DNA of 64,000 bases. It comes from Temnopleurus reevesii. Taxonomy: Eukaryota; Echinodermata; Echinoidea; Temnopleuroida; Temnopleuridae. The notes under the pieces are model-generated. The model was not told the origin of the DNA, did not search any database, and worked only from the letters and a program-made list of their open reading frames with translations. The stretch is taken from positions 6,950 to 70,949 of the forward strand of contig BQKZ01000743.1 in NCBI GenBank assembly GCA_036244855.1, written 5' to 3'. Positions 862 to 56,564 of this stretch are shown here, in pieces (positions within the stretch are counted from its first letter, which is position 1; each line of letters starts with the position of its first letter). The position numbers and the translations under genes were made by a program.

Positions 862-3800
862 CTGGTATCATTCCATTTCTGTTGCTTTTTGATGAGTTAG
901 ATGCTGCATTTCCCCCTGGTATCTGTAAAGTGGTATCCCCTGGTAAGAGAGGTGTAGGTGGCAATGTGATACGTGTTCCCTCTCCGGGTTGACGGGGCGT
1001 TGGAATGCTCGTTGTCAAATCACTCGATCTGTAGAATGATATTGAGAAAATAATATTTTGAAATAACATATCCAATCGTTAACGTGATGCAACCGGATGA
1101 ATAATTGTGGTACAGAATACGACTTCCCCTTGCGAGGGCGTGTCGGATATTTAGAGAAGCCAAGAATGTCACTCTGAACGGGGTGAATACAGAACTCACC
1201 ACTGAGGGAGGGGCGGCGATATTTCTAATCATATTTCTGTTGGAAATTTAAAAAAGATTGTATTTAAAACTTGAAATATTGATCTACTCGCCGCTTGACT
1301 GACAAGCCGTGAATAAAAGCACATACAATTTCGTCATTCTTCATGTTTTCATGAGGGCCTATATCGATATTTTGTGTTCTCATGCATTGATTAGATGAAA
1401 AAAAGACTGTATTAAGATAGAGTTTTTAAAAAAATGTGTAGGTTGTGTAATATACCTCAAGCAAAGACTGCAGCTATCTTTTGGAGGTGCAGAACTGCAT
1501 AACTCGGAGACATTGAGAGATTGGTCCTCTGTTAGCCAGACCCTCCAGTAAAGTCCATTACTCCCGTTCTGAGCACGTTCCAGTGTTGTGCTCGCCATTG
1601 CGGAAGGTTTACAAGACAGCCCTTTTTCGTCCGCACCTCTTCCAACGTTAGGCCACCATCTGAAATACACTTGATCTGGTATCGGATCGCAATCTGTGTA
1701 ATCTGGTGGTATAGTAATATGAATAATTACGATCATAAATATCGTTACAGAAAATAGTTTCAAGGGGTATTTACGGGAAGCCGAGTAAATTAGAATGGGT
1801 ATGGGCAAGGTAAGGGTTAACATTTATCGATAATCCTTACTCAATTCTTCAGTATATTTCCTTTAGAAGTAATAGTCGTTATAATAAGGATGTACCATCT
1901 GCAAACGGAAGAACACTTAGATTTGAAACAGATTTATGGCGCAGAATTGAGTTCAAACAATTTGAATAAAAGGTACTTTTCCCTTTTTAAAGGGTAACTT
2001 CAACCAGACATTGATCAGTGGATGGAGAAAGATACAAGCTGTGAAAATTTGAGCAAAATCGGACAATCCATTAAAAAGTTAGGAATTTTCAAAATTTTCA
2101 TTTACATCCCGCATAGGTTAGGGAAAAAAATTGTATAACGGACCCCTTATTTATTTCTACAACCTTTCCACTGTACAGGCCTGAAACTTCCTTTTGANTG
2201 GAAGATTCGAGAAAAGCCATGGAAATGTCGTGCCTAGTAACTCTCGTGCTACATGTAGCTGTGTGTGGTTTTGAAATCCATGCCAGAAATTTAAGGAAGT
2301 GATGAAAAACAGCCATTTAGTAATGAAATATTCTTAGAATTCTTTAAACAAATTTCTGTGGGTACCATGGATGTGATACGATATATGTACATTTCACTAC
2401 ATGTACATGACGTAAGCCCATACCATGACACAATTAATTGTTTTAAAAATATTTCCTAACCTTCATAACGAGAAATTAGAGGGAAATACAAACTACATAT
2501 TGAATATGTTTTACCAGATTTAACGACTTATTTTTTTTTCATGTTAGACAAAAATTATCCAACATAGTGCAACATATGAAGCTGCGAAGCTATCGGGAAC
2601 TAATTTGCCATTAAGAGTAAATTGGGAACATGATCTAGTACAATTTTTTTGACAGTGGTTCTTAAAACACTATCTGGAAGTTTATTTTATTTTATCTACT
2701 ATTTTGATGACAGTATATTGTCCATTATTCATATGGTTCTCATTTTCTTTTGAGGGAGGTGGTTCTATCGGCCATTTCAAAGCGTTCAACGTCACACATC
2801 TCTCTTCGCTTCATGAAGATTATCATTGTCCACTTGACACAAGACTTGATACTCATTAACGTCATTCCATCTGCTATGGACACCTTGAAGAAACCGTTTT
2901 TAGAACTTATCATAAATATAGGTTGCTGGTGACGTTCAAAGGGTGTCAATATTTATAGCGAAGCGATCGGAGTATGAAGGGATCTCGTATTAATTATTAT
3001 GATATTTAGTCACTATTAACAATGACGTCGGAAGTGTAAGGTCATTCAGGAAACTTTTTGTTTTTAAATTTGTCGATTCGTGTAGGTTGTAGCACTCCAA
3101 TATTGTGTGAAAGGTCTACCATTTTCTATACCTATTGTCATGTAGAGAGGAGGAAACGGATGTGACGGATATCGAGTAATAATGAATTATAAAAAAAAAT
3201 CCATGCACACGAGAGGGGCACATTAACACGCTTGTATTTTATGGGGGTGTTTTTTTTGTTCTTAAATCATGTAACCAATTAATTTGTTCTTTCAAATATG
3301 AAAAACATACTCAAAGTTATTAACAATAAAGTGGTACGAAGACGTAAGGGTGTCCTTTTCGGTGTGTTTAAAACGATGACATTGTAGTCAACGCTTTGTG
3401 TTGAAAGGATCGATCGAAATAGCCTAACTTCTTTACTTAGATATGACATTTAAAGTACTTCATCATCTGGTCACATCGCGGATTGTTTTAGAAACTTTGG
3501 CAATCACGTCATTGTGTGGTGTTTGTGGGTATATGTCGAGTAGCTGAAACGATGGAATGAGATAGAGGCCAGGACGTGATTCATATGCAGCTAATCATCA
3601 GCCGAATTAGATCTCCCATCATCCAAAATTCTCGTCGATGTGACTTTTATTTTCATGGTCGCTATGGTCGACCTGATTTTGTTTGGTTGGTGTTGTAGTC
3701 ACGCGAAGGTGAAATATGCCAAAGTGATTTTACCTTTACTGTGTTTACTCTAGCTAGGGAGGTGGAATGAGCCAACAAACTACGAAAACTAAACAAAACA

Positions 3801-4575
3801 AAACAAAACAAAGTAACAATGTTATGTTTTGTTTTGACAAGCGCATCAACGAGTTTAGTGGCTTCACATTTTACACAATTATTGCTACAGTAATCAAAGT
3901 AATTTATTAGTCCCTAAAGGCATGTAACTTTTGAGCAATTTAGATAACAAATTTGCAGTATGAGCTGATGAAATAAGCTTACGTTAGAAATTACGAATTT
4001 TATTTAGACCAAGAGCTGCGAGAAAGAAATAAATATTTAAACTTTTCAAAAAATTGGAGAAGTGGTAACCTTTATAAACGGTAGATTTAAACGTAAAAAT
4101 TGCTTGATTTAACACTTTAACGGTTGGATGCAGCATTTGTAAAATTAAAGTTTACCATTTTAAATTGGTTAATTGTTTGCCAACTTTATAAAAAAAAATG
4201 AGGTTATATAAGGGCATGGGAACACATGTATAAACACAGTATAAACACAGTATAAAATAAAGTGCGTCATGAACAATAAAGCCGTACGCCATGTATTGAA
4301 CTGTGAGGACACAACAATAACAAGCCGGTTCCGATTTGAATAGCATAACAAAGATGCATTGAATTGGCGATCGACTTGATTTTCAGAAATAGATTATATC
4401 GTGTTATATATACTTACAGGGGACAGAGATGGGTTGATACGATATTCTGCCATACTGGATCGATACCATTTACAGGAGTACCGCCATCTTGGGCTGTCAA
4501 ACCAAACTCCATCATCAACATAAGTTGAATCAACACCAACAAACTACAACCCAGTGACATCTTCATCTTAAACAT
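862..4575 (-). CDS. R0: partial receptor-like gene with signal peptide, extracellular exon and stalk, truncated at the left window edge
   Basis: Three exons are visible on the minus strand. Exon 1 (4575-4418) begins ATG and encodes a signal peptide (MFKMKMSLGCSLLVLIQLML, then MMEFGLTAQ); it ends in phase 2 at a strong GTAAGT donor. A phase 1-2 exon (1702-1456) encodes 81 residues with two NxS glycosylation sites and ends CSLCLR. A phase 2-1 exon (1028-862) is a Pro/Thr/Ser-rich stalk ending GMIPG at a GTAACA donor. The junction of the last two exons keeps the frame. Exon 1 (out phase 2) cannot join the 1702 exon (in phase 1), so at least one 2-1 exon is missing from the model. If the last donor is not used, the frame stops at 839-841 and the product would be secreted. 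By analogy with R1 the next exon should be the membrane exon, beyond the left edge. Function unknown; R1 is the closest relative in this window. Confidence 0.6.
1456..1702 (-). CDS. R0 extracellular exon (phase 1-2)
   Basis: The exon is bounded by an acceptor ending CACCAG and a GTATAT donor. It encodes 81 full codons starting DYTDCDPIPDQ and containing NGLYWRVWLTED near the middle-to-end. It resembles the fifth exon of R1 in three places: DCDPIP against GCYPIA near the start, SNGLYWRVW against ANGLWGSC, and CSLCLR against CGECKR at the very end. Both exons are phase 1-2 and directly precede a phase 2-1 stalk exon. This is the main evidence that R0 and R1 are paralogues. No known domain is recognised by eye. 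Confidence 0.65.
2799..2870 (-). CDS. Possible missing 2-1 exon of R0 (unresolved)
   Basis: After an acceptor ending ATAGCAG, an open stretch in phase 2 reads WNDVNEYQVLCQVDNDNLHE and then AKRDV before a TGA. It resembles the fourth exon of R1 (DVECKYERGNEESL), and its entry phase fits the R0 signal exon. I find no acceptable donor that would leave it in phase 1, so it stays a candidate. It could be a decayed exon or a chance open stretch. Confidence 0.2.
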
Positions 4576-5099
4576 GTTAAAGCAGTCTGATCACACAACT
4601 TCTCAAGAACGACGAAAATGGCGGGAATCAGATACGCGTTGGTATATCGGGAATACCCATGTTAGTGTGAAAGAAAAAAAAGGTATAACTTATACGACAA
4701 ACTCTTGCGATTATGTATGTCACTTTATGCTATTCAAAACGTCACTGTGAAGAAGAGATGTATTCCAAAGTATCCTGTTTGGCGCGTTAAAGATATGTCA
4801 CTTGAAATCCCACTTGAACGAATTGCTCTCACCGAATGTTGGTGATTTTGCATGACACAAATGTAAAACAGAATTAAAATTTGATGTAAACAGTAGCAAA
4901 AAATCCCACTATGTTGCAATGCTGCTTCCCGTATACCAGCACGGTTAACTAGCTCATGTTTTTCAGTAACACTTCCATTATCAGAGTCCTGCAGAAGAAC
5001 AATAGGTGAACTAGATCCGTTATAAAGTAAGTTTAGCAACACCCATCGGTTTGATAATGAGTTTTCGATCACAGTTCACATCCAATAGTCTCTCGATTC

Positions 5100-6200: not shown

Positions 6201-6211
6201 GAGAAAAATTG

Positions 6212-7744: not shown

Positions 7745-7759
7745 ACAGTAGACATGGTT

Positions 7760-17258: not shown

Positions 17259-18064
17259 CTAGAGAGTCCCATACACTTCCTCACTGCTTGGAGGCATATA
17301 ATCGGGTTCTTTCGCTCGAGTATTGTCTGTCGTTTCATTGGAATGTTTGAGATCTGTGCCGCTAGGTGGCGCTGTGTGCTGTTCAGCGTCAGTCATATCA
17401 AGCTGTCCGTACTGGGCACTATCATCATCCTTCTGCTCCGTCTTCATAGGACCCCTGTCCAGAGATTGATATGTCTGTACCTCTGTGCGACAGTCAACTT
17501 GCTCTCCAGGAACAGCCTGCGCTGGTTCGAGCCTTCCGTATTCATTGTCCTCTGGAGAATTTACATGACTCTGGAGATGTCCAGATTTATTGAGACTCCG
17601 GTCAAGTTTCCCGTACTGACCACCATCTTCGATGACGTCATCCGTCCGGCTACTCTGGCTCTCTACTTCACCCCGTCTCTCTTCAATTACATCATCGTTG
17701 GGTACTGTTGTTTCTGGGTTTTCATCCACACCAAATTCGAGATACTCCGGTTGTTCATCGGTCTTTGGACTGTTCTTCTCATTGGGGTCTTCAAGCTCAT
17801 AATACACCAAGCCATCACCTGGGTCCTTCCTGTTTTGTTCGATTGTCGTTGGCTCGTTTCGGGACGAACCTCCCTCTCCTCCTCCTCTGTACCAAAGATA
17901 CCCATTGGAGTCTTCCGTAGCATTGGTCAGTGGTCCTTCTTGTTGTGATCTATTAGATGTTCCTAGATGTTCGACTCCTGCATAGAAGTGTAAATCTTCG
18001 TTGGCTTCGATCTCGTACGCGTTTTCTTCGTCTGTACGACTCGGCGCTCGCTTCACCGAAAGCT
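17259..18064 (-). CDS. R1 exon 9: cytoplasmic tail with ITIM-like motifs
   Basis: A phase-1 terminal exon of 267 codons plus TAG. Tyrosine motifs in order are YAGV, YYEL, YGKL, YGRL, YQSL, YGQL and YGTL; YLEF and YMPP also occur. LVYYEL fits the classic ITIM consensus (hydrophobic or Ser at -2, L/I/V at +3). Others keep YxxL but lack the -2 residue. The motifs from YGKL on are spaced roughly 16-30 residues apart in Asp/Glu/Ser/Asn-rich linkers, and the last sits exactly at the C-terminus. No kinase, TIR or death domain is present, so any signalling must be by recruitment. Confidence 0.85.
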
Positions 18065-21000
18065 CTAAGAAAACGTAAATCAAGTAAGAAAAATCGAGAT
18101 GGTTAGTGAAGTGAAGCCAAGTCACATTATGATTAAGTTCTCATGCCAGGGTCGGATCCAGCTTTTTCCCAAAAGGGGTTTTGGATGCCAATTTAGACAT
18201 TGGTCAGGGGGAGGGTATTGGAGATGGTTCCCCCTCCCACAGTATGGAGGGTTTTTTTTTTCATTTTTAGAGTTGCCAGCTATCTTTTTGTAATTTGGAT
18301 CCGCCACTGCATACATGTAAGCACTTAATATATGGATAGAACGTTCTTACAAAGTGTAAATTATATAAGTGTGTATGGACATGCTCTTTTTAATTTTCAC
18401 ATTTATGCTGAGCAATCAAAGGTTTGTACTCTCCAAAAAAACATAGAAAGTTGCTATTGTTCTTGGTTGGCTTCATGCCTTCACGAATGAGAACTAAAAT
18501 TTATATAATAATGGAAGATTAATGGTTTGCCGTAGAAATTGTATTTCTATACGAACCTGCCAAGGAGCCAGTGTCTTTGCAACTACATCCTTTCCTCATC
18601 CTGCAGTGCGTGGGAAGAAGCAAAAATTAAATTCTGAATGTTCAAAATGTTGAATTCATTGCAATAACAATTCTTTTATCCCTCATCCCTCTCTCGTTTA
18701 AGATGAAGCAGTACGTGCGTTTGTCTCCTTTAAACTTCTGAAAACGCTCCACACACCATGTCTTTTCGTGCACACATCAGCACATTCCTTCACTTAAACA
18801 AAATTTAAACAACAGTTAACCCAACAATGTGCCGTTAAAATAGACTCAATACCTCAATAGCTTTTTTGTTTTGTTTGATACACATTTAAACTTTTTTATA
18901 TGATTAAATCATTCTGGAACACTTTCCATTCAAATTGTAATCTTACCATTGTGGAACACCTCCGTTCCGCCAAATGAAAACCACACCGACAGCGATAAGG
19001 ATAATGATGATGACGATAGGTACCACGATACCAGCGACGTTTGCCTGGTTTGTATTTGATCCTTCAAAGCCACCCATATTTCCTCCTCCACCTGCATTTT
19101 ATTCCAATAAATGAAAAAAATGTTATGGCATTTCCTTATGGCTCATGGTTTGTAAACGATTTCATAACTTATTTCGAACATCAATATCTGATCTTTGATT
19201 ACTTGCGCTAGGATAGAGGACTTACAGACAGGAGGACATTTTTTCTTGTGAATGTATCTTAAAAGGAATTGATTCCATCTACGACATTCCGGCAAGCTAG
19301 AGACCTATATCTCAGAATGAGCTGTGTCAAACAGTAATGACTGAATTTAGCATGCCAACTTCATTATAATACCACAACATTCTCGAGATAAATATAATTA
19401 TCATTATCTTTTTTAAAGATATTTTCTTATTTTATAGTTTTCAATGAGGCAAACTAATAAAAATGACATATTTTGGTGTTATGAAAATATTCTATGATAA
19501 ATGTCAAATGATTTCGCTTTGTAGATCTTACCAGCTTGAGTTGTACTTGACCCATTGTCCGTTCCGTCTAGAGGGCTGTAAAGAGAAAAAATATTAAAAC
19601 TAATTCAGGGTCCTTGTGAGTGTTCCTTACTTGCTAACTCATGTGTATATCGAGCGCGAGTCAAACAATTTAGCCAAGCTGCGAATAGAGGCAGTAAAAT
19701 AATCAATAGAGCATATTTTGGATTTCGTCTTCCTTAAATATTAACTTGTAACATTATTTGTTTATTTATTTATTATCATTTATTGAATTCATTCACTCAT
19801 TCATTACAATTTTCTTTTAATCCTTTATTGTTTCATGTTTTAATTCTTTATACTTCATTCTTTTTTTTTTTTTTAGTTTTTTACTATTTTGTTTGATTGA
19901 TTGATTAATTTCTTTCTTTCTTTTCTTTTTTTAGAGGGGGAAGGGTAGTCTTGTCCTCAAGCAATGAATTCTCAGGCCTTGTCCTCACGCGGTTGGGTTT
20001 GGGTGGTGTCGCCCTTACTCTGGGAGGTCGTCCTCGTGAACTTGTTTTCAGGTCTTGTCCTCACCAATTGTTGTTTGGGTCTTGTCCTCACACAGTGGTT
20101 TTTCAGGTCTTGTCCTCACCAATGGTTGTTCGGGTATTGTCCTCACGCAGTGGTTGTTCGGGTCTTGTCCTCACGCAGTGGTTGTTCGGGTTTTGTCCTC
20201 ATGTTGTGGTTTTAAAATCTTGTCCTCACACAGTGTTTTTTCATGTCTTGTCCTCACCAATGGTTGTTTGGGTCTTGTCCTCACACAGTGTTTTTTCAGG
20301 TCTTGTCCTCACGCAATGGTTTTTCAGGTCTTGTACTCACGAAGTGGTTTTTCGGGTCTTGTCCTCACCAATGGGTTTTCAGGTCTTGTCCTCACCAAAG
20401 TCTTTTTTTAGGTCTTATCCTCACAAATAGTGTTCAGGTCTTGTCCTCACACAGTGGTTTTTCATGTCTTGTCCTCACCAATGGTTGTTCGGGTCTTGTC
20501 CTCACACAGTGTTTTTCAGGTCTTGTCCTCACGCAGTGGTTTTCAGGTCTTGTACTCACGAAGTGGTTTTTCGGGTCTTATCCTCACCAATGGTTTTCAG
20601 GTCTTGTCCTCACACAGTAGTTTATCAGGTCTTCTCCTCACCAATTGTTTCTCGTGTCTTGTCCTCACACAGTGGTTTCCAGGTATTGTCCTCGCGTAGT
20701 GGTTTTGGGGTATTGTCAAGGGGGGAGGGGCTATATTTCTTATGGGGTTTAGGTTGTCACACTGTTGGAAGACCAAAATTGCTCATGGAAGAGACCAAAG
20801 TTTGACATGTCATTTGTTTAAAAAAATTGAACTTTTGACTAAAACATGAAGAGATATATTGACTGCTTACCTTTTACATTCACCACACGCCCCACAAACC
20901 GGTGGACTATTACGTGTCGGTGTTTCGCATGAGCATGAGCCCCATAAGCCATTAGCAATCGACCTTTGCAGACAAATATCTGAACTTGGTGAGAAGATGT

Positions 21001-29990: not shown

Positions 29991-30067
29991 ATGACACGGA
30001 TATTTTTTCTTTGGTTTCTTGCTTTAATCACAGTACAATATGCATCGAGCAATCCGGTAAATTGTAT
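29991..30067 (+). CDS. R2 exon 1: signal peptide
   Basis: Twenty-five codons from ATG, with a hydrophobic core IFFLWFLALITV and small residues (YASS) for cleavage. It ends in phase 2 at a GTAAGT donor. The next codons in genomic frame are a stop, so the exon must be spliced. Its start is chosen because it is the ATG that places the hydrophobic core at the N-terminus. Confidence 0.65.
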
Positions 30068-35400: not shown

Positions 35401-38400
35401 GATTTAGCATCGACCGAAATATATATAGGACCACACCAGAAAGGTGGTAAAATAACATCCTTTTGGAATCAAAGAAAGATATTTAAACAACGACTGATGT
35501 TGTTCATGTGATAAAAAAAACAATGAGTGTTTAACTAGATTAGATTGACTCCAACTGGTGACCTTTTAACATTTTACTGGTGTGGTCCTATATACATTTT
35601 TGCAGTGCGTCTTCTTTGTGGCATAGAGCGCTAAATACAAATTTGAAATTAAATGGGTTTTACTCTAATTTACGCATATAAGATCATTATAATTTAGCAG
35701 AGGCTATACTGCATTAGTCATTATAGTTACAATCTCATAGTCACGACAAGGGTTCTGCTCTGATTTGCCATATTTGATTATTCACTATTATTTTGTTTCT
35801 GTTTATAACACGATACTACTTCTCAATCAGAAGGGTTTTACACGAATTTTCACATGAGCGGTATTGGAATTACATACCATTTTGTGCTGAATTTGACCAG
35901 TTACAGCTTAGTGAAAGATTCTCAGAGACCGATAAAGCTCTTAAAATGTAGTATATGTAATATAAAGTAATGGGGAGAAAGAAACATTTACATTGACCAT
36001 GAATAGCTCCAAGGTATGAAGTATTTACGCTCCAGAATTACAATACAGAATTTGCTCGTTTTGGTCTGTCACATGTGAAAATCATATCTAGCATATTTCT
36101 AAATAGAGATAAAAAAAAAAAACATGCCATACCGTATGCTTCACAGATTCCATGCAAATTGTCCACACCATACTCTCTCCGATATAAAATTAGAGTCATT
36201 TAAAAAAAAATATTGACGGATTTTCTCACAGCAGTCGTTCGATGTGGTTTCGGGTGGTGAGATGATGTATGAGTTAAATAGATCGTCACCCCACATATTC
36301 GTATGAGTGAAAGTCTAAGATTTAATACTCCCTATTATTGTAGTATTAGAGAGTAGTGACTTCATTCACAAGTGTTCATAGTCGTTAGTCACAAATGTCA
36401 GCATTAAGAATTACCATGGTTATTATGATGGATATCAAATTTTCAGGTCAGAAACTATGGAATCTTGTTTTCATTTATTTGCATATAATGGAGTGCATTA
36501 TCCTGTTGCATAATTAACTTGTTGGAGGAGTAGCAGGGTTGTATTCACAAATTCACTCGTTGGCCACTGTACATTTCGAAACAAATTAATTATTTCAAAC
36601 AATTCTATGTCTACCTGCAATGACGGACTTTTGTTTTGGGTAGTTGGCATAACCTTTGTAAGATTCGAGCCATTTGATCTATTCCATTTAAAAAAAGGAG
36701 AAAAGCCGGTATAAGAGGGAACGAAATGCGTTATATCTATTTTAAGCATTTTCAACATTGCTTTTTTAAAGAATTTTACCCATCTTCTTCATCAAACACC
36801 AGATCTATACATATCACTCGTTGGCCACTGTACATTTCGAGACAAATTAATTATTTCAAACAATTCTATGTCTACCTGCAATGACGAACTATAGGCCTAT
36901 ATTTGTAGCTGAGACCAATCAAAAAATCCCCCCTAAAATTTCAATTTAGCCAGGGAAGATTTACAAACAGGTATTTATGTCAATTTCGGGTTCCAATTTT
37001 CTCTATAACAGTATGAAGCTACCGAATGCACACAACGGATACGCTACCCCTGGCGGAAAGTGCCCCACGGGCGGGTCTGGTAAGAATACCAATTTTCAGT
37101 TGTTTTATGGAATACCTCACCCTCAGCTCATTCATTGTATCACACCATCCATTCTCATTCAACGGGAATTCCCCTAACCACATCCATAGGTGCCCCCACC
37201 CCCACTTCCATTCTAGTCAAAAGGAATCCACTCCAGTCATTCCCTCAAGTGTAGTTCGAGATCCCCCCCCCCCCCCCCCCCCTCAGCATTACCCCTGCTA
37301 TTCCGCTCTCAATTCCAGTTTAACGCGAATCCTCCTATATTCACACCACAGTCATGTAATCCTATCCTCCATTCTATTTTAGCAGGAACCCCATAGCCCC
37401 CCACTCTTCCCAATCATGCTGTGAGCCCTAATGAGAACTCTCTGCCAACATCAAACTAAATGAAACCTATCGTCATTTCTACTTCAACATAAATGCTCCT
37501 ACACCGGCCCAGTCAGTCATTTCCTCTACCGTCCAGTTCAACGGGAATCCTTTAGCCCCACCCCAATCATTTTTCCCTACTCTCCATTTTCGTTCAATCG
37601 GGAATCTCCAAACCCCACCTTAGTCATTTTCACTTCTTTTCAGTGTAGTTAAAGTGACTTTAGTATCTAGCCCCACCCCAGCAGTAGTCTGGATTACCTC
37701 CATTCTGATACAAATACTGTGCTTAAAAGCTTGTTCATGTTTACACATTCATCTTGCATTTAAACTTGCACATGAGTCCAAAGATAAGTGGTATCCCTCT
37801 CCCCTTTACCCATCTTTATTTCGCACCACATCTTTATACTTTGAAGATTTATTGTTTAAAATGAATGTATGTGTAACTGTCCACGTGAGTCACACTAATA
37901 ATCGGATTTAGAAAACTGTCAATCAAAGTATGTCACTTATCCACATTATTAACCCTTTACGTCAGTCCACGCAACAACTCTTAACTTACCAGATTTGATC
38001 CCATCCGCGTGAACTCTCGTCATAGCTACTGTCTAATCATCTCAAAACTGGATTTTATCAATCTGTCATTCTAGCGCGATCCTCGGATGGCATGTATGGT
38101 TGAAGGCTGACTCACACCTTTGCATGTTTAGTCTGCATCAACCCAGCGTTTTTGAAAATTGAAGACGCCCCCCCCCCCTCCCCCGGACGCGCAAAGACGC
38201 AGGTCAGATGGTGGACTGACGTTCGGCGTAAGCTTTTTGAGCGCAAACCAAACGTCAGTCCATAGTCTGATCAATGTATGCCGTGCAATCGGGGAACGTT
38301 TTCAATCTTAAAAAAAAACCCGCTGGGTTGGCGCAGGCTATAAACACAAAGGTATGGGTCGTCCTTTATATTGAATGACTGTTGTCGTAGGGTGATGGTA

Positions 38401-39110
38401 CCGCTAGTAACAGTTAATGATCATTGAGTCAAACAATTAAATGCACTTACAGCATGCAAATTGAATGAACTTCATGACTTTCCATACTTTTCAAGCATCC
38501 TTTGGTTGAGTTGACGAACAAAATGTATTTTTTTAAGTGTTATATGATAGTTTGTCGCTTGTTTTAAGTTTCTTAATATTTTATTTTCATTTGGATAATT
38601 TCCCCTTTTCAATTTTGATATCTGTGTGTTTGTCATGCCTGTGTGAATGTGGGGCAAATTGATAGCAATGCACATGCCCTAAAACTTTCTCCGTGGACAG
38701 AATACACATGCCCCCTATTCTAACATGTCCAAAAAGGACGTTATTTTATGAGAATATCGACCGCTCTAAGAGGATTAATACAAAAATGATTCATGCCATT
38801 CCATTTATAGCCAGCTTACAGGATGCAAGTCATTATGATGTGTGGCTTGCCATCACAGAAACAATAGAGAGAGAAAGAAGGAAAAAATAAGGACAATCTT
38901 GCGGGTTTGTGAACTTTAGTTGTTCAAAATCGGGAGAATGGTTTTTCGGAGTAGTCAACCTAGTGGATAACCTCGTATAGTAGTAATGATAGCGGTAGTA
39001 GTATCAGAAGGAAGGAGAGGGAGGAGTGGTTATGATAGAAACCGTAGTAGTGATAATATTAATAACAGTTGTAGCAATTAGTAATAGTAGTGAGATTAGC
39101 AGTGATGGTT

Positions 39111-45100: not shown

Positions 45101-46407
45101 GAATTAATGGTTATTTCCTGGGCTGTACTTAGGGTATAATTACACTTGATCTGCCGTTTTAAGTAATGCGATCATATTCTGCAACCTGATTCGATGATAG
45201 GGATTAATGGGTCTTAAACTCTCACAAGTTGGTTAAGTTACAGTGTCAGTTTGTGCTTCAGTTTCCTCTGATATCTGCTTCCCTCGGTATGCAGATATAG
45301 CTTGCTAAAAATGTCATAATTCTAAATCAGCCAATGCTTTATCCTCTGTGTACTTAACGTTCGTTTTGATCGAGTAAGTGGTCAGAGAAACCCATCTCCC
45401 TCGATGGATTCTAGGATGAATATGAAGATAAATATCAAAATAGAATAGAAGCTGGAAGCTGGCTCATTTCCAAAATTGATAATGGGCTTCGTACTTAATC
45501 AATCAAAACTGAAACCAAATAAGATACAAGTTTGCATAGACTGGCATCACACAAGGATCATATCATTACCAAACTATGATTTATTATCAATATTGGAGAA
45601 CTATTTTTTTCTGTCCTCATTACAGACGCTATATGTACATGCACGAGCAACAGCCACCAGTGTTGCGACCAAGGTAAACTACAAGACAACAGTCGCCACT
45701 ATGCTGGGCCTTCCCACAACACGCCGCCACTGAACACCCGGACACATCATGTCATTCCTTACGCACAGTCCCATGCTTACCCCACCAGGAGTGAGCAGTC
45801 TTCAAGAAGTGAGGATAACATCAAAGGCTACATGGGCCTCATCAAAAGTCGACCTGAGGGTGACCCGAAGCATCCCAACCCACCAAACGCCTCTCGACCA
45901 ATCATGACACAAGCAGTGAACCACGAGTATCACATGCCCCATCACGGCTCAGCTATCAGAGGAACACAGAGAGAGCTCAATCAGCCACAGGAACTGCAAC
46001 AGACACACGCCCTCAGCGGTGGGCGAGCACCAGCCCGTCATGTCGTTGATAGTGATCCGTACTACTTCAAACTGAATGATAGCCAAGAGTCAGGGCAGGC
46101 GACATCGATGATGTCCAATAGGAATGTGCCCGATGTCGTCGCAAACCGACCGCTTCCACCAACAGACCTGATGCAACAGAGCAGCTCGGCCGATGAAAGG
46201 GTGGATAAAAAAGATCGTGAACAACAACGGGACGGGTATGACGCCATCTTTGTCGTACAAGATAGTGCTGGTTCGAGCCCTACATCACATGGTCTTATCA
46301 CTCGAGAAGAAAGCTATGATAAACTAGATCGATCAAGGAAATCGTTCAGACCAAGGAATCAGGACAATGATTATAATACTATTTCCCTAGACGTACTCAA
46401 GATGTAG
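29991..46407 (+). CDS. R2: complete six-exon receptor-like gene, 433 aa
   Basis: Plus-strand exons: 29991-30067, 33519-33565, 34108-34293, 35175-35316, 37012-37079, 45626-46407. All introns are GT-AG, phases are 2, 1, 1, 2 and 1 in order, and the total is 1302 nt. Exon 1 encodes a signal peptide (MTRIFFLWFLALITVQYASS). Exon 2 is a 2-1 exon (SRDQGIGTILECLPI). Exon 3 is a Pro/Glu-rich stalk ending in five glycines. Exon 4 is the membrane exon, exon 5 a short Gly/Pro piece, and exon 6 a 259-residue tail. The ectodomain is very short, so either R2 is a signalling stub or extra 2-1/1-2 exon pairs in the 3.4-kb first intron were missed; such pairs would not change the frame. The likely role is a tyrosine-motif surface receptor like R1. 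The last intron is 8.5 kb and holds a gap and a duplicated block. Confidence 0.75.
30598..30722. repeat. AATGAT microsatellite in R2 intron 1
   Basis: An imperfect ATAATGATAATAATG tract. Confidence 0.9.
30733..30945 (+). mobile_element. Dispersed repeat, copy 2
   Basis: TATATAGCGCACTTTCTATT, ATGCGTTCAGAGCAAATTA and GGGAATTCCACAAAGTTGG follow in the same order as the corresponding blocks at 9458-9705. It lies directly after a microsatellite. Confidence 0.4.
31487..31558. repeat. ATT/ATC microsatellite in R2 intron 1
   Basis: A mixed TTATTATC and ATCATC trinucleotide tract. Confidence 0.88.
32262..32445. repeat. AAT/GAT microsatellite in R2 intron 1
   Basis: A long imperfect trinucleotide tract. 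Poly-Leu, poly-Ile and poly-Ser frames on both strands are artefacts. Confidence 0.92.
32540..32660 (-). mobile_element. SINE fragment, minus orientation
   Basis: Contains the reverse of a B-box-like motif (GAATTCGAACCCATGACTC) and a body fragment (GTGAGTAAGCTGGGTTTGAA). Partial and diverged. Confidence 0.35.
33164..33435 (-). mobile_element. Full-length tRNA-derived SINE (family S), in R2 intron 1
   Basis: Read on the minus strand it starts with a tRNA-like head: GTTGTGGCGTAGTGGTTTAG (A box) and CGCGGTTCGAGTACC (B box). It continues through a body containing GTGCTGAACTCAACCC and CAGGAATATGTATTCC and ends GCTATATAAATTGCAT. 5'-truncated copies lie at 44400-44586 and 63480-63688, both ending in TATT repeats. 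Confidence 0.75.
34108..34293 (+). CDS. R2 exon 3: proline/glutamate-rich stalk
   Basis: A phase 1-1 exon of 61 full codons. Short repeats of the type (E)KPE-(R)PE (EKPELPEKPERPEFPESELY) run into EEPDHEEPD and a Cys-containing end (PCPPGNKNCHRGGGGG). The strongly acidic, proline-rich composition fits an extended extracellular stem. R1 has a different, Ser/Thr-rich stalk in the same position. Confidence 0.75.
35175..35316 (+). CDS. R2 exon 4: transmembrane exon
   Basis: A phase 1-2 exon. GSHGVMGVYKA leads into ATFIGVAILIAIMVTVLSLV and then IYCVWKRRRDR. The basic stop-transfer cluster KRRRDR puts the C-terminal side in the cytoplasm. Phase and position match the membrane exons of R1 and R3. 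Confidence 0.85.
36553..36890 (+). repeat. 77-bp direct duplication in R2 intron 4
   Basis: TCACTCGTTGGCCACTGTAC and the following 57 bases at 36553-36629 recur at 36814-36890 with about two changes, 261 bp apart. The sequence between is unique. It is a recent local duplication. Confidence 0.85.
37012..37079 (+). CDS. R2 exon 5: juxtamembrane exon
   Basis: A phase 2-1 exon of 22 full codons (MKLPNAHNGYATPGGKCPTG, then GS) between AACAG and GTAAGA. Phase and size class match exon 8 of R1 and the second R3 exon shown here. Confidence 0.7.
38102..38368. mobile_element. Palindromic MITE (family P, copy 2), in R2 intron 5
   Basis: Outer ends AAGGCTGACTCACACCTTTG and the complementary CAAAGGTATGGGTCGTCCTT. 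Inner arms GGACTGACGTTCGGCGTAAG and AAACCAAACGTCAGTCCATA. A C-rich expansion sits in the left arm. Confidence 0.65.
38757..39068 (+). repeat. Duplicated block, copy 1
   Basis: About 310 bp beginning ATCGACCGCTCTAAGAGG, nearly identical (about 98%) to 43249-43566 and in the same orientation. Differences are a few substitutions and one- or two-base indels. Both copies run into a TAG trinucleotide tract. Confidence 0.92.
39105..39300. repeat. AGT/TAG microsatellite
   Basis: A long trinucleotide tract giving poly-Ser and poly-Leu frames, which are artefacts. Confidence 0.93.
39308..39412. repeat. Heptamer tandem array TTTCGAG
   Basis: Roughly 14 copies of the 7-bp unit TTTCGAG, decaying at the right end to TTTTGA and TTTCGAC. 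The unit shares TTCGAG with the arms of the hairpins in the neighbouring 186-bp array. Confidence 0.93.
39520..40060 (+). repeat. 186-bp tandem array with an embedded hairpin
   Basis: Three diverged units. The first two contain the hairpin AACTCGAAGTTG, a 13-base loop, then CAACTTCGAGTT, with arms starting near 39615 and 39801. Units also share TTTTCGCTTTAAAACACAC and TTAACGG. The third unit lacks the hairpin. The same array recurs in inverted orientation at 42072-42413. Confidence 0.85.
40082..40276. repeat. ATC microsatellite
   Basis: An imperfect CATCAT tract with CACCATTATC interruptions. Confidence 0.92.
40300..41640. other. Non-coding stretch in R2 intron 5
   Basis: AT-rich, between two repeat arrays. 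No exon or transposon terminus was found. Confidence 0.45.
41641..42071. repeat. Purine-rich minisatellite
   Basis: About seven irregular units of 45-65 bp built on GAATACGAGCAGGGATAATA plus GAGAGA runs. The strand bias keeps frames open on the minus strand (Ser/Leu/Pro-rich), which I reject as coding. Confidence 0.85.
42072..42413 (-). repeat. 186-bp tandem array, inverted copy
   Basis: Two units in the opposite orientation to 39520-40060, with hairpin arms starting near 42079 and 42264 (AACTCGAAGTTGG ... CCAACTTCGAGTT). The array is cut by the gap at 42414. Confidence 0.85.
42414..43248. other. Assembly gap (835 N)
   Basis: The run of N separates an inverted repeat array from a duplicated block, so the local order in R2 intron 5 may be wrong. 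Confidence 0.99.
43249..43566 (+). repeat. Duplicated block, copy 2
   Basis: Matches 38757-39068 at about 98%. It starts exactly at the gap edge. At 43567 its continuation is interrupted by a retroposon, after which the match to copy 1 resumes (GTAGTGAGATTAGCAGTG). Confidence 0.92.
43567..43752 (+). mobile_element. Short retroposon inserted in copy 2 of the duplicated block
   Basis: About 185 bp present here but absent from copy 1. It begins in a T-rich stretch and ends with CCAAATAAATGTGCG and an ATTGAA repeat tail, typical of the 3' end of a non-LTR retroposon. It has no coding capacity. Confidence 0.7.
43770..43828. repeat. TAG microsatellite, copy 2
   Basis: A shorter version of the tract at 39105-39300, in the same position relative to the duplicated block. 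Confidence 0.9.
44400..44586 (+). mobile_element. Family S SINE, 5'-truncated, in R2 intron 5
   Basis: Contains GGTGAGGTGAATGGGTACC, AGCCAGGGTAATAATAATG and GCGCTATATAAATTGCATC, then TATT repeats. It lacks the tRNA head seen at 33164-33435. Confidence 0.75.
45626..46407 (+). CDS. R2 exon 6: cytoplasmic tail
   Basis: A phase-1 terminal exon of 259 full codons plus TAG. It starts with a cysteine cluster (DAICTCTSNSHQCCDQ), which could be palmitoylated near the membrane. It then carries five YxxL/I motifs: YMGL, YFKL, YDAI, YDKL and YNTI. The segment SYDKLDRSRKS resembles QYGKLDRSLNKS in the R1 tail. A short proline stretch (NRPLPPTDL) could bind an SH3 domain. Composition is Ser/Asn/Gln/Asp-rich and probably disordered. 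Confidence 0.82.
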
Positions 46408-51715: not shown

Positions 51716-52771
51716 CTAAACGCCTATCATAAGTTTATTATAGGATCGATCATTGCTCCTCCCTGAAACATCTGATGATCCAATGGATGATGCACGTCTT
51801 CTGCCATCGTGTGGTCGAATCATCTTTGAATAGCATCCTACTTCTTCAGCACATGTTACCGACCGAGTTGAAGGAGCCTCCACCAGCTCGTATGGTGAAG
51901 GTGCGCGCTCTCGAAGCGATCCAGCTCGGATTCTCCCTTCGAGGCATCGTTCTCCTGGGGCACCCAGTATCATCCGGTGTTTCTCCAGGGTTTTAGGTGA
52001 CCATGTCCCACCGCGTAGAATCCCAACGCTTGATGACTTCTCCAGAACTGGTCGGGCCTTCGTTGCTGGTGGTTTCAAAGCCACTTTTTGTTTGAAGTTT
52101 ATATTATTGTCATTGGTAATCCTGGATGACGGGCCATCCTTATTTGGAGACACAGGACACGTATTATCATTCTCATCACAAGACTTCAACACTTTATTCC
52201 TATCCGTTACAATCGGTAGTACCTGTCGCCATCGTTTACCCACATCACGATTCTCCAGAGGACTCGGAGTACGGTCTTCTTTTTGTTTCATTTTGTTTGG
52301 CATCGTCTTTTCGAGACCGAAGTAAAAGGGCTCTGGTTTTTCAAGCTGCTTTTGGATTTTCTTTGAAAGACTCCTTTTCGGTCGACTCTCTCGAAGTCGA
52401 ATACTCGGTCGCTTCTTTGTGTCTGTGGCATCTACAATTTCTGTTACGACATACGCTATCGGGGTTTTGCAGGGTGACCCGCTAGAGCCGGGAGTGCCCA
52501 CGGGGGACTCGGACTCAGACCTTCCAGATGGTGTTGGTGCAAAATCTGAACCCGTCAAACAATTACTAGTCTGTGCCCGTGGTCTCATGGTCGTACTCAT
52601 CTGAGACTGGTTATTTGTTGGCGTCCGTATACGACTGTCTAAAGTACAACTCCTATCAAATACCTTCTTGAGAGGAAGCTCTAGACTGTTCTTCAGCTCA
52701 GCTACTGTCGGAGAAAGCATCGTGTGTCCTTGAGAAGGGGAGTCGTCTAGAAAACTCTCCAGCGAGTTCAA
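51716..52771 (-). CDS. R3 last exon: long basic cytoplasmic tail
   Basis: An open frame of 351 codons plus stop, entered at TTG (Leu) directly after a CACAG acceptor. It is rich in Ser, Pro, Arg and Lys, with many Ser-Pro and Arg-x-x-Ser sites. Tyrosine motifs include SPYELV (fits the ITIM consensus), YSKM (the YxxM class bound by PI3-kinase p85), YFGL and SYNKL near the C-terminus. Codon-level coherence over 1 kb makes coding status very likely even though an in-frame stop lies just upstream. It could belong to a separate protein, but membrane and juxtamembrane exons line up with it in phase. Confidence 0.75.
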   Translation of the reverse strand: MNSLESFLDDSPSQGHTMLSPTVAELKNSLELPLKKVFDRSCTLDSRIRTPTNNQSQMSTTMRPRAQTSNCLTGSDFAPTPSGRSESESPVGTPGSSGSPCKTPIAYVVTEIVDATDTKKRPSIRLRESRPKRSLSKKIQKQLEKPEPFYFGLEKTMPNKMKQKEDRTPSPLENRDVGKRWRQVLPIVTDRNKVLKSCDENDNTCPVSPNKDGPSSRITNDNNINFKQKVALKPPATKARPVLEKSSSVGILRGGTWSPKTLEKHRMILGAPGERCLEGRIRAGSLRERAPSPYELVEAPSTRSVTCAEEVGCYSKMIRPHDGRRRASSIGSSDVSGRSNDRSYNKLMIGV

Positions 52772-55700
52772 CTGTGAGGATTGGTAGGACGGTTATTGTT
52801 GATGCCGCTGTAAGGGTTGCATTACCATAGTGGGAACTATGACGTCGTCATATTCTTCAGATACTAGGGCAACGCCTTCTGTGTCATCTTCACTCTCCGC
52901 TGAATAGAAATCGAAAGATAAGAATTAATCTTAATTCATTGATATATATATTACTTTCGATTATTCTTTGCTTTATTGAAACCAGATCAAAAGTCTTCAT
53001 GAGATGCTCTTCATACCAATTGAGAGTTGATTCTTATCTTCATTATGAAAACTCCCTCAAACAAAGAATTGAAATTATGCAAGATTAAAGTGTATACAAT
53101 AAGGAAATACATAGTACATGAATCATGTAAATGAACAACTTAGATAAACGTATGTAATTGCCATTTTAATGATAGATATCGTTTGCTTTTTAAACTCAGT
53201 TACTCATTTATATATATTTCTATACAATTCTAAGCAGTTCTTGTGATATATTATTAAGACGTTGAAAACCATCATAATGAGTTCTGATGTGTCAATGGCA
53301 ACGAATTTTGTCAGAAAAAAAGTTGAAAAATCAAAACGCCCCGATCATACTAAATGATTTTCATTTGTATGATTAACCGTGCCCAAAACTGCTTACCTAA
53401 GAATTCTTACAGAAATGACATCGTGTTAGCCAATTACGCATCTAGCAGATTTGTGCTATTTTTAAATTTGTTTCCGAACCACTATAAATTCTATTAAAAT
53501 ACAAAAGAGTTTGTGTCATTATAAATTGTTTTATATTATACAATTGTGTTGCTCCCCATCATCTTCTAAGAACTTACCCTCATTATTGTCTGTTCTATCA
53601 GGAACATCTTTTACGACGCTCTGCTTTAACGATCTGCAATGGAATTATGTGCAAGTGGTTGATAATATTATTAAGAAGTTTTAAGAACATATCATTTACA
53701 TGCCTCGATTAATATTTCTGCGTTGAATATAATTATATTCAGAAAAAAGGAATCGAAAACTGCTTGGATATACAATTATGCTACATCTTGAAATGCATCA
53801 GTCAAACCATTAACAGCTGTTCTTCCTGAGTGCTTCTCAATATTTTCAACTCACCAATGACGAAGAGACTATTCTTTCATCGACTGATTCATTGAATAAA
53901 CAACACAGTGGAAACAAGAAATGATTTGTTCTTTAGTCATATTAATCGAAGATGTTGGATCTCTTATGCTTGATTGTTGCAGGAAAGGGTTTGGATTGAA
54001 CCTTTGCCTGTGCAAATTTACTTTACGTTAATTCTGATATAATTAAAACATTCCAATCTGTTTGTAATGTATACTTTAAAACATTATAACGTACTAAGTC
54101 TCGTTTAGGATTCTGTGACCTAATATTGTCCACCCATGAACAGAGTAGGAGTCATAACCAAAACGACTCAACCCCACAGAATCCATCTTCAGGATCTTGC
54201 CACAATATTTGGGCTTCCCCAGGACTCTGTGACCTCATGTTATGGAAGTCCTCTGTGACCTGATACTATCTACCCTTGAACACGCAACCACGTAGAATCT
54301 GTCATACCCCAAGGTTGATTTCTTGGGTGAGACCATAGATATTTTTGGGCTCTTTGGGAAGACGTATTCTGTTAGCCTAGTCAGACAGAGCGTTCTGCTT
54401 TATGCGTCCCTCTATGTTCAGATGTAGAAAATATTAGGTCACATAGTCCTAAACTGAACAACAGCGTACCTTGTATTGTGTTCTATGCTGAGGCAGGAAA
54501 TATTCTTGAATAGTCTTGCTATGATGATTGCTTGGATGATACAGAATATTAATGAGATGCTTCCAAGGCCAACACCTACGGCGCCCAACATCAGTGTCAC
54601 ATCTATAGATACATACATGAAAAAAAGGAATATTAAAGGCGTAATAATATTTAAGGCACATTCATGCGTTTATGTTTATAACCAGCGTATGCATAGCTAG
54701 GCGTTGATTTAAAGTAGACCCATGGAAAACGCTTGAATGACGTTGAATACATTCGGCTAGTGCTCGACGTCAGTCAACGCAGTTAAAAAAGGTGCAATGT
54801 TTCACCTTGCAACACCAGGAGCACATTTTTTTCAAGGTGCAAATGTATCACTTCATTCCAAGGTAAACGTTATACCGACTGAGCTGCTACCTGCTTTCAA
54901 CCGATTGACGAATTTATCACATGAAATATATACTTTATACGTGAACAGTGACAATCCATTTCGCGTGGAAAATATGCAAAAGTATCCGCTAGTTTAACAA
55001 CACTTCCGAAGGGCGTTTCATAAAGATTCTCGCCAGCGACAAGTAGTCAGCGTTGACTAATCTACTAATCCAATGAAATACCTATTTTTTATTTGAAGAA
55101 AATCTCTCTCGCTAACTGCTGCTATTGTAATTTTCGGAAAATGAATGTTTATTGCTGGCGACAAGCTTCATGGAACACACTTCTGGTCCGTGTTTCACCA
55201 AGTTACGAAAGACTTTGAGAACGACTTTATGTACGACTGGTATCAGTTCTTGTGCCAAATTACACTCGTTAACGTACTTCAGTCTTTTCGTGCGTAACTT
55301 TAAGAACGATTAGGTGAAACAACGCACTGATGTCTTAATGTCCACCACTCAATGCGAGTGGATGCACAGCTCAGTCGAGAGATCGTCTGACTTAGAATGA
55401 AGAGATCCTTCATTGTGCGGATTTGGACCCCATAACTTTCTCATTTTAATGCATGTATCTTTTTTTTAAATATTGCATCTTTATCAAGAAGGCACAATAA
55501 TGCACCCATAAAGTTGAAATGTTGACCCCTGCGCAAACGTCTTTCTGTGTGCGTAGGAAGACGCAGGGAACACACTCTGCTGACGTTGAAGACTTTAGGC
55601 TCACATTCGACTGTAACCTACCTCTTACGCACAGGGACAGTCAAACAAGTTGGCTATTAACGAAAATGTGTGACTGCGACGAAAATTAAAAGCTAAGTTC

Positions 55701-56564
55701 TTGTTTTTTATATAGAAATGAATTTTTATAGGAATTTCTGAAGCTGATTATCTTCCAGAAATTTTTGTTTAAAAAAAATCAAATAATAAATGCTTAGTGA
55801 ATTTCATAAGTACTTGTTTTTTTTCTGGAACAGCTTACACAGGAGACCAGTTTGCAGGGAAAAACCCGATAAATTCAGTGGGGAATTTGATATATTCTTA
55901 CTCTCACGGACATCCTGGACAAGCATTTTGGACATTATTGTTTATTCATCATTCTATTAAACATGTATGTGTCATTTTTCTTTGTTTTTGCCAGTTTATG
56001 CTTTACATTTGAAAAAGTGTCAATAAGGATAATACAAACATTGGAATCTTTCTTTAATCTGAGTGTATGCCACATTTTAAATAGCAGTATATGCAATAAT
56101 CGAATTCGCTGAAGTTTGTGCCTGTATAGATATGTTTGAATGAAGAAATAAATAAATGAATAAATAAATCACTCTGTACGACTATTGAAATTGCATGCAT
56201 GCAAGAATCATGGGGGGGGGGGGGCTTTAGTTGCTTAAGGGGCGCAAAATTTGAGATAAAAATGCCGCCGAAATCGCAGAGAGGGAAGCCAAATCAGGTG
56301 ATGACGTTCCCCCATTTTTTTTTTACTTGACAGCCTCTGGCGGGGGGGGGGGCAAATTTCGTTTGAGGAGCGCCAACAGTCGAGTCCACCCCCCTCCCCC
56401 TCCGTCTCAAAATCCTGGGTTCGCGCATGTAGATATTTATAGCATCGACTTGATTTACCGCTTGTCTATTTACGTACCTCGATCTTTAACACTCGGTTTC
56501 ATAATGGTTGATCCTTCTTCTACAACGACAAGACAAAAGATATTGTATAACCATTGCACCGATA
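51716..56564 (-). CDS. R3: receptor-like gene, membrane and tail exons; 5' end not identified
   Basis: Minus-strand exons: 56564-56478 (phase 1-1), 54602-54470 (1-2, membrane), 53633-53578 (2-1), 52899-52826 (1-0) and 52771-51716 (0 to stop). The first four junctions are standard GT-AG. The last pair is separated by 54 nt that carry an in-frame TAA, best read as a very short intron (donor GTAATG, acceptor CCTCACAG). The 54602 exon encodes LGAVGVGLGSISLIFCIIQA and then IIIARLFKN. The tail is about 380 residues, basic and Ser/Pro/Arg-rich. The exon at 56478-56564 is the least certain. No signal peptide was found; candidate ectodomain exons near 60.9-61.1 kb are listed separately. The role is presumably a tyrosine-motif surface protein like R1 and R2, but the tail differs in charge and composition. 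Confidence 0.65.
52772..52825 (-). other. 54-nt mini-intron with an in-frame stop (R3)
   Basis: On the minus strand the segment begins GTAATG and ends CCAATCCTCACAG. It contains TAA at 52795-52793 and a branch-point-like ATAAC about 25 nt before its end. Its length is a multiple of three, so retention leaves the frame unchanged but stops translation after 34 tail residues. The alternatives are a nonsense mutation (CAA to TAA) or a sequencing error. Confidence 0.55.
54470..54602 (-). CDS. R3 transmembrane exon
   Basis: A phase 1-2 exon with acceptor TCTATAG and donor GTACGC. It encodes DVTLMLGAVGVGLGSISLIF, then CIIQAIIIARLFKNISCLS: about 24 hydrophobic residues followed by an Arg/Lys flank. 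Same phase class as the R1 and R2 membrane exons. Confidence 0.78.
55011..55180. mobile_element. Foldback MITE in R3 intron 1
   Basis: GCGTTTCATAAAGATTCTCG and CCAGCGACAAG at the left mirror TGCTGGCGACAAGCTTCATG and GAACAC at the right. About 170 bp, no coding frame. Confidence 0.65.
55190..55326. mobile_element. Second foldback MITE, ten bases from the first
   Basis: Left GTGTTTCACCAAGTTACG and right AACGATTAGGTGAAACAACGC pair as inverted ends. GTTACGAAAGACTTTGAG is matched by AGTCTTTTCGTGCGTAAC on the other side. It belongs to a different family from its neighbour. Confidence 0.65.
56210..56420. other. G-rich and C-rich low-complexity stretch
   Basis: Several runs of 8-11 G or C residues. 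The plus-strand open stretch over it is compositional. Confidence 0.6.

What the first reader, a model, noticed from the sequence alone, without database searches (positions are those of the whole stretch)
862..56564. A cluster of four diverged tyrosine-motif receptor genes held together by shared exon phases
R0, R1, R2 and R3 encode type I membrane proteins without a recognisable ectodomain family. They share a phase grammar: signal exon out in phase 2 (R0, R1, R2), membrane exon 1-2 (R1, R2, R3), next exon 2-1 (R1, R2, R3), tail exon in at phase 1 (R1, R2, R3). Sequence identity is low but specific short matches exist (R0/R1 ectodomain end; R1/R2 YxKLDRS). Exon phase outlasts sequence, so common descent is likely. 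A rapidly diverging cluster of phosphotyrosine-tailed receptors would fit an innate-immune or allorecognition locus; that role is inference.
Basis: partly seen in the sequence, partly recalled or inferred. Interest (0 to 1): 0.78.

Follow-up and report, generated by a model that had tools for sequence, protein, structure and literature searches.

The report
Old sea-urchin tyrosine-tail membrane gene trio
Three neighbouring, unnamed sea-urchin genes encode single-pass membrane proteins; two of them have long tails whose tyrosines are mostly unchanged between distant sea urchins, which makes them look like old signalling proteins and not like a fast-changing immune gene cluster.

Summary
The window is sea-urchin DNA. 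R1, R2 and R3 are real genes. Their best named matches are L. pictus LOC129257097 (R1, 69% identity), S. purpuratus LOC105439613 (R2, 60%) and L. pictus LOC129256259 (R3, 57%); Diadema antillarum has a match to each. R1 (6 exons) and R2 (9 exons) are open, GT/AG-spliced and co-linear with the annotated proteins.

The phase claim largely holds. In R1, R2 and R3 the membrane exon leaves in phase 2, a 44-68 nt mini-exon runs 2 to 1, and one long last exon enters in phase 1. R1 and R2 signal exons leave in phase 2. R1 shares one tail motif with R2 and another with R3, but profile comparison of R1 with R2 aligns only the membrane helix. Common descent is likely, not proven.

Three parts fail. R0 lacks membrane and tail exons in the window and is unconfirmed. 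R3 has no evident ectodomain, fewer tail tyrosines and one in-frame TAA. "Rapidly diverging" is contradicted: 12 of 13 R2 tail tyrosines are invariant in 4 aligned sequences, and the part before the helix changes no faster than the rest. I read R1 and R2 as phosphotyrosine docking proteins (inferred). Immune or allorecognition function has no support here.

The parts
29991..30067 (+). R1 exon 1, signal peptide, phase out 2
   Evidence: aligns with the start of L. pictus P0004
33519..33565 (+). R1 exon 2, phases 2-1
   Evidence: aligned with P0004
34108..34293 (+). R1 exon 3, proline/glutamate-rich stem, phases 1-1
   Evidence: aligned with P0004, P0005
35175..35316 (+). R1 exon 4, membrane helix, phases 1-2
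   Evidence: window scan for membrane exons
37012..37079 (+). R1 exon 5, juxtamembrane mini-exon, phases 2-1
   Evidence: aligned
45626..46407 (+). R1 exon 6, whole tail: 10 Tyr, 8 invariant in 4 aligned sequences, 5 YxxPhi
24716..24837 (-). R2 exon 1, signal peptide, phase out 2
   Evidence: aligned with P0001
23820..23920 (-). R2 exon 2, Cys-rich ectodomain, phases 2-1
23076..23265 (-). R2 exon 3, Cys-rich ectodomain, phases 1-2
21913..21986 (-). R2 exon 4, ectodomain, phases 2-1
20871..21096 (-). R2 exon 5, Cys-rich ectodomain, phases 1-2
19532..19575 (-). R2 exon 6, stem, phases 2-1
18947..19091 (-). R2 exon 7, membrane helix, phases 1-2
18557..18600 (-). R2 exon 8, juxtamembrane mini-exon, phases 2-1
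17259..18064 (-). R2 exon 9, whole tail: 13 Tyr (12 invariant in 4 aligned sequences), 8 YxxPhi
54470..54618 (-). R3 first recognised coding exon: Met then membrane helix, phase out 2 (an acceptor in phase 1 at about 54602, with an upstream exon, is not excluded)
53578..53633 (-). R3 juxtamembrane mini-exon, phases 2-1
51716..52899 (-). R3 tail exon, in at phase 1, with basic and serine-rich conserved blocks and 1 in-frame TAA
52793..52795 (-). in-frame TAA in the R3 tail exon of this assembly; the frame stays open for 358 codons after it
4418..4566 (-). R0 candidate signal exon, phase out 2 (unconfirmed)
   Evidence: coding score reached by 13% of open null segments
1456..1702 (-). R0 candidate ectodomain exon, phases 1-2 (unconfirmed)
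   Evidence: coding score reached by 1.5% of 205 overlapping open null segments
862..1028 (-). R0 candidate stem exon, phases 2-1 (unconfirmed; a membrane exon would lie beyond it, none seen in the window)
   Evidence: coding score reached by 2.2% of 695 overlapping open null segments

Best explanation
R1 and R2 are old, echinoid-conserved single-pass (type I) membrane proteins whose single-exon tails act as multi-site phosphotyrosine docking platforms. Shown by sequence: signal peptide, membrane helix, exon structure, full-length relatives in other urchins, and selective conservation of tail tyrosines. Inferred: a kinase phosphorylates the conserved sites (in R2 GYLWY, VYYEL, EYLEF, YGKLDRS, EYGRL, TYQSLDR, YGQL, YGTL), which then recruit SH2-domain proteins; the Cys-rich R2 ectodomain binds an unknown ligand, while R1, with a short acidic proline-rich ectodomain, acts more like an adaptor or co-receptor. 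R1, R2 and R3 probably arose from one ancestral gene by local duplication before the Diadema/other-euechinoid split, since they keep the same membrane-exon / mini-exon / single-tail-exon layout and phases. R3 has since become, or always was, a membrane-anchored protein with no evident ectodomain and a basic, serine-rich tail. R0 is unassigned.
For: Relatives: R2 P0001 E 3.3e-119, R1 P0004 E 2.7e-177, R3 P0008 E 1.2e-123, plus D. antillarum matches for each. Exon tables and phases: the post-membrane layout is the same in 3 of 3 genes, with mini-exons of 68, 44 and 56 nt and tail exons of 782, 806 and 1184 nt (R1, R2, R3). Tail Tyr invariant in R2 12/13 against 73/255 other residues (p 6e-6) and in R1 8/10 against 80/250 (p 0.003). 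YxxPhi in the R2 tail 8 against a shuffle mean of 1.8 (0 of 2000 reach it), in R1 5 against 1.6 (1.1%). Motif sharing R1-R2 (YxKLDRS) and R1-R3 (DPYYFKL/EPFYFGL) is reached by 0 or 1 of 1000 flank shuffles. In D. antillarum the R2 and R3 relatives are both listed on a contig of length 310277, which suggests an old linkage.
Against: Profile comparison R1 vs R2 gives one match, over the membrane helix (64.5% probability). Motif order is not significantly collinear (14%, 8% and 17% of permutations reach it). R2-R3 share no significant motif. The best pairwise R1-R2 match (E 0.08) would put the R1 and R2 introns at different places. Motifs could be shared by convergence on the same kinase or adaptor. 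R3 tail Tyr conservation is not significant (4/6, p 0.07), yet its window tail has 5 YxxPhi against 1.3 in shuffles (0.1%; 1.7-13% in its relatives), so a tyrosine role for R3 is not excluded. The D. antillarum R1 relative is listed on a contig of another length (1511862), although R1 lies between R2 and R3 here. No phosphorylation or expression data were seen. Orthology rests on best matches; no reciprocal search was run.
Confidence: 0.57

Rival explanations
1. R1, R2 and R3 are unrelated neighbours; equal phases and a few YxxL motifs are coincidence plus convergence.
For: Profile comparison R1-R2 finds only the membrane helix; motif order not significant and R2-R3 nothing; the parts before the helix differ wholly in length and make-up; R1's Diadema relative is on a contig of another length than R2's and R3's.
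Against: Same phases at the two post-membrane introns plus the same exon layout in 3 of 3 adjacent genes, and a phase-2 signal exon in both R1 and R2; specific motif matches beyond shuffles.
Confidence: 0.33
2. The tail motifs are YxxPhi endocytic or lysosomal sorting signals (AP-complex binding), not phosphotyrosine docking sites; R2 would be a scavenger-type or recycling receptor.
For: 8 of 13 R2 tail tyrosines and 5 of 10 in R1 fit YxxPhi in the window proteins; the R2 tail ends in YGTL/YGSL.
Against: Conservation extends past YxxL (YGKLDRS, YYELE, GPLTNAxEDxxGYLWY) in all 4 aligned R2 sequences, and acidic residues flank many sites; a few sites would serve sorting (recalled). Both uses can coexist.
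Confidence: 0.25
3. A rapidly diverging innate-immune or allorecognition receptor cluster.
For: Overall identity to relatives is only moderate (42-69%), and R2's ectodomain is Cys-rich with no Pfam family.
Against: Few relatives and no expansion seen (3, 3 and 4 clusters among 5.77 billion proteins, in a search that needs shared 5-residue words); identity before the helix at or above identity of the rest (R2 64% vs 57% and 47% vs 44%, R1 72% vs 68% and 56% vs 54%); 22 of 24 R2 ectodomain Cys invariant in 4 sequences.
Confidence: 0.07

Closest known systems
S. purpuratus LOC105439613 / L. pictus LOC129257097 / L. pictus LOC129256259 (annotated, uncharacterized)
   Same: Best named matches of R2, R1 and R3: same layout, same tail tyrosines for the most part.
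   Different: They carry no function or family name; one literature search for the three locus names found 0 papers in the held library.
ITIM/ITSM receptors, e.g. amphioxus BbLcLRR (PMC8211107, abstract read)
   Same: Membrane receptor with several ITIM or ITIM-like tail tyrosines, phosphorylated by Lck in that work.
   Different: No LRR ectodomain by Pfam; only 1 of 8 R2 YxxPhi sites fits the strict ITIM in all 4 aligned sequences and none in R1.
Transmembrane adaptors such as LAT, NTAL, PAG (recalled)
   Same: Short ectodomain, one helix, Cys in the near part of the tail, many tail tyrosines: like R1 in layout.
   Different: Not compared by sequence beyond Pfam; the R1 CTC cluster lies about 37 residues after the helix; no YxN (Grb2-type) sites in R1 or R2.
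MEGF10/Draper/CED-1-type engulfment receptors (recalled)
   Same: Cys-rich ectodomain and tail tyrosines, as in R2.
   Different: No EGF/EMI domains by Pfam in P0001 or P0002, no NPxY, no ITAM spacing in R2.

Membership tests
ITIM inhibitory receptor | [ILVS]xYxx[ILV] sites, usually two or more (recalled) | tested here: not met
   R1 0 in 4 of 4 sequences; R2 one site common to 4 of 4 (L[VL]YYEL), a second only in the two Diadema proteins; R3 0 or 1
ITAM receptor | YxxL/I-x6-12-YxxL/I (recalled) | tested here: not met
   0 in R2 (4 sequences) and R3 (5); 1 in one of 4 R1 sequences (P0005 only)
Known ectodomain family (Ig, LRR, SRCR, EGF, lectin etc.) | Pfam match | tested here: not met
   nothing above a curated cut-off in 10 window pieces and 6 relatives; the weak matches lie mostly over membrane helices
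Type I membrane protein (R1, R2) | signal peptide and one helix | tested here: met
   (by hydrophobicity and relatives; no topology experiment)
Type I membrane protein (R3) | signal peptide and ectodomain before the helix | tested here: inconclusive
   L. pictus and Diadema proteins begin roughly 5-13 residues before the helix; upstream one search lists one signal-like candidate (57004), whose donor is in phase 0, not 1
One gene family R1/R2/R3 | significant sequence homology | tested here: inconclusive
   membrane helix and single motifs only
One gene family R1/R2/R3 | shared intron phases and exon layout | tested here: met
   two post-membrane introns, phases 2 then 1, in 3 of 3; intron structure of relatives not tested
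Phosphotyrosine docking protein | tail tyrosines phosphorylated and bound by SH2 proteins | not testable with these tools
   only conservation of Tyr tested
Immune or allorecognition locus | fast-changing ectodomain, copy-number variation | tested here: not met
   polymorphism not testable

The most novel reading that the evidence does not exclude
R1, R2 and R3 are the founding members of an echinoid family in which one ancestral membrane-helix / mini-exon / single-exon-tail cassette was duplicated locally before the euechinoid split (around the Permian-Triassic boundary) and joined to wholly different ectodomains (24-Cys in R2, proline-rich stalk in R1, none in R3), giving a phosphotyrosine docking system with a previously undescribed Cys-rich receptor ectodomain.
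Probability: 0.3. Interest if true: 0.55.

Novelty: new member of a known kind. Interest (0 to 1): 0.38.

Why it matters
Here two neighbouring uncharacterized sea-urchin proteins have tails in which tyrosines are far more conserved than other residues between Diadema and the lineage of Strongylocentrotus and Lytechinus, so a specific docking function can be tested directly. The case also shows how far exon phase can go as evidence of descent: it agrees with weak motif evidence, but sequence profiles do not settle it. The result corrects a tempting reading: a Cys-rich receptor next to other tyrosine-tailed proteins is not by itself an immune or allorecognition cluster.

Tried and rejected
R2's ectodomain as two tandem copies of one domain: exon pairs 2/3 and 4/5 have the same phases, but alignment scores do not exceed shuffles and profile comparison finds nothing. 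R0 as a one-domain relative of R2: no similarity. Structure prediction: the R2 relative P0001 with 3 sequences gave mean pLDDT 32.2 and the R0 exon alone 45.5, so no fold search was run. Solved structures: 3 matches over the membrane helix for the R2 profile and 6 at E 0.99 or worse for the R0 exon. Literature (listings only, titles and abstract starts): searches listed 12, 6, 8 and 7 papers, none seen to be on these genes; two searches returned 0; one search was for divergence dates. My first splice model of R3 assumed a short intron around the in-frame TAA; relatives show the stretch is colinear, so it is one exon with a stop. First offsets for two R1 donors were wrong by one base (that R1 output is void), corrected; the R3 translation printed was in a wrong frame.

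Rows dropped: P0003 (95% identical to P0002) and P0009 (fragment) were left out; P0009 was left out of the R3 conservation count. P0006 is partial: its first part does not match R1.
Full report
WHAT THE WINDOW IS. The protein search with a partial R2 model returned 3 clusters at E up to 10, all sea urchin: S. purpuratus LOC105439613 (P0001, E 3.3e-119), Diadema antillarum (P0002) and D. setosum (P0003). R1 returned L. pictus LOC129257097 (P0004, E 2.7e-177), D. antillarum (P0005) and an unnamed entry (P0006). R3 returned L. pictus LOC129256259 (P0008, E 1.2e-123), D. antillarum (P0010) and two unnamed entries (P0007, P0009). Of the species named, only D. antillarum showed all three. The window is sea-urchin DNA, closer to Strongylocentrotus and Lytechinus than to Diadema: R2 0.60 vs 0.46 and 0.47, R3 0.57 vs 0.42, R1 0.69 vs 0.55. 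The species was not determined. The named matches are labelled only as uncharacterized. I treat best matches as orthologues; no reciprocal search was run.

CHECK OF THE EXONS. R1: six exons, 29991-30067, 33519-33565, 34108-34293, 35175-35316, 37012-37079, 45626-46407, intron phases 2,1,1,2,1, each intron GT/AG, open frame of 433 codons, aligned end to end with P0004. R2: nine exons between 24837 and 17259 on the minus strand, intron phases 2,1,2,1,2,1,2,1, each intron GT/AG, open frame of 583 codons, aligned end to end with P0001. The first three R2 exons became clear only from the S. purpuratus protein. R3: 54470-54618, 53578-53633, 51716-52899. Its tail frame holds one TAA at 52793-52795, after which 358 codons stay open; over the whole protein R3 is 57%, 60% and 42% identical to P0008, P0007 and P0010. 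Whether the TAA is an allele, an assembly error or readthrough cannot be told.

R0. Three candidate exons exist. Their codon scores are reached by 1.5% (ectodomain), 2.2% (stem) and 13% (signal) of open null segments, which overlap one another. The signal exon leaves in phase 2 and the next enters in phase 1, so at least one exon is missing; the scan for it gave one weak candidate. A membrane exon and tail would lie beyond the window start. No homologue search was left for R0. It should not be counted as a tyrosine-motif receptor.

THE PHASE GRAMMAR. After the membrane exon, R1, R2 and R3 have the same plan: membrane exon out in phase 2, a mini-exon of 68, 44 and 56 nt running 2 to 1, then one exon (782, 806, 1184 nt) in at phase 1 that carries the rest of the protein. 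R1 and R2 also share signal exon out 2, second exon 2-1 and membrane exon in 1. A filtered scan of the window for spliceable membrane-helix exons gave 4 candidates; the two in phase 1-2 are R1 and R3, and R2's fell below the acceptor threshold. The grammar was noticed after the fact and phase statistics of sea-urchin genes could not be measured here, so I give no probability. For R3, phase-1 entry into the membrane exon is uncertain, because two relatives begin roughly 5 to 13 residues before the helix.

SEQUENCE EVIDENCE FOR COMMON DESCENT. Profile comparison of the R1 and R2 families finds one match, over the membrane helix (64.5%). BLASTP of P0001 and P0004 gives at best E 0.08, for a Cys-rich juxtamembrane match that would put the introns at different places. 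At the level of conserved tyrosines, R1-R2 share YxKLDRS and YAG, and R1-R3 share [DE]P[FY]YFxL. The summed and best scores are reached by 0 or 1 of 1000 flank shuffles, for R2-R3 by 15% and 60%; order along the tail is not significant for any pair (14%, 8%, 17%). I take common descent of R1 and R2 as likely, of R3 as plausible.

SELECTION. Tail tyrosines are invariant in 12 of 13 positions in R2 against 73 of 255 other residues (p 6e-6), 8 of 10 against 80 of 250 in R1 (p 0.003), and 4 of 6 against 114 of 389 in R3 (p 0.07); each set has four aligned sequences, and the R2 set holds two near-identical Diadema proteins. YxxPhi sites: R2 8 against a shuffle mean of 1.8 (0 of 2000), R1 5 against 1.6 (1.1%), R3 window tail 5 against 1.3 (0.1%), R3 relatives 1.7-13%. 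Counting everything before the helix (signal included) against helix plus tail, identity is 64% vs 57% (R2-P0001), 47% vs 44% (R2-P0002), 72% vs 68% (R1-P0004) and 56% vs 54% (R1-P0005); 22 of 24 R2 ectodomain cysteines are invariant in 4 sequences. The age of crown Euechinoidea spans the Permian-Triassic boundary, and Aulodonta and Carinacea arise in the Triassic; diadematoids are Aulodonta (PMC8940180, passages seen; that Strongylocentrotus and Lytechinus belong to Carinacea is recalled). Each gene thus has its own relative across that split. A rapidly diverging cluster is not what the data show.

MECHANISM. R1 and R2 most likely work as membrane-bound phosphotyrosine platforms. Several sites with conserved flanks beyond the four-residue core speak for specific docking rather than only endocytic sorting, but both remain open. 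Consensus sites were counted (consensus patterns recalled). R2: one ITIM-type site common to four sequences, a second in the two Diadema proteins, no ITAM, ITSM, NPxY, YxN or YxxM. R1: none of these, except an ITAM-spaced pair in one of four sequences. R3: an ITIM-type site in 4 of 5 sequences (not all the same site), two ITSM-type in P0008, a YxxM in 4 of 5, one YxN in P0007. They are not filed under ITIM or ITAM receptors. R3's conserved blocks are basic and serine-rich (RPRAQTS, KKRPSVRLRES, GRRRASS in the consensus), which by recalled kinase preferences suits basophilic Ser/Thr kinases better than tyrosine docking.

LINKAGE. The D. antillarum relatives of R2 and R3 are each listed on a contig of length 310277, that of R1 on one of 1511862. 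Equal lengths suggest, but do not prove, one contig. If so, R2 and R3 have been linked since the euechinoid split, while R1 is not between them there or the assembly is broken.

LIMITS. The own-genome search did not complete (12 calls), so paralogues elsewhere in the genome and R0 beyond the window were not examined. The homologue search needs shared 5-residue words and similar length, so absence outside echinoids is weak evidence. AlphaFold models were too poor to use.

Noticed in passing
window 52793-52795 (-): Single in-frame TAA inside the otherwise open tail exon of R3; the aligned relatives have no stop there.
   Followed up: partly
window 38757-39023 and 43249-43514: Two nearly identical stretches (189 nt at 100% and 81 nt at 96%); the second starts right after the 835-base N gap (42414-43248) in the last intron of R1, which suggests a false or haplotype duplication that lengthens this intron by about 4.5 kb.
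   Followed up: partly
window 20045-20706: Minisatellite of about 24 copies of a 28-base unit in the R2 intron between exons 5 and 6.
   Followed up: no
window 39502-39821 and 42094-42413: Inverted repeat, 320-nt arms 93% complementary, inside the last intron of R1, overlapping direct repeats of about 187 bases.
   Followed up: no
window 21705-21777 (+): tRNA-like match (Rfam RF00005, 34.6 bits), not found by ARAGORN; perhaps a tRNA-derived repeat in an R2 intron.
   Followed up: no
window 33150-33458 (+) and 63449-63736 (-): Two open stretches with similar peptides (YYYPGF...GISRNTYSC...WVEFSTM.MNFLLK), apparently copies of one interspersed repeat.
   Followed up: no
R2 tail, residues 466-534 of the predicted protein: Four YxxL units spaced 25, 23 and 20 residues (25, 22, 24 in P0001); number and order are kept in the two Diadema proteins, but there one gap is only 9 residues.
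   Followed up: partly
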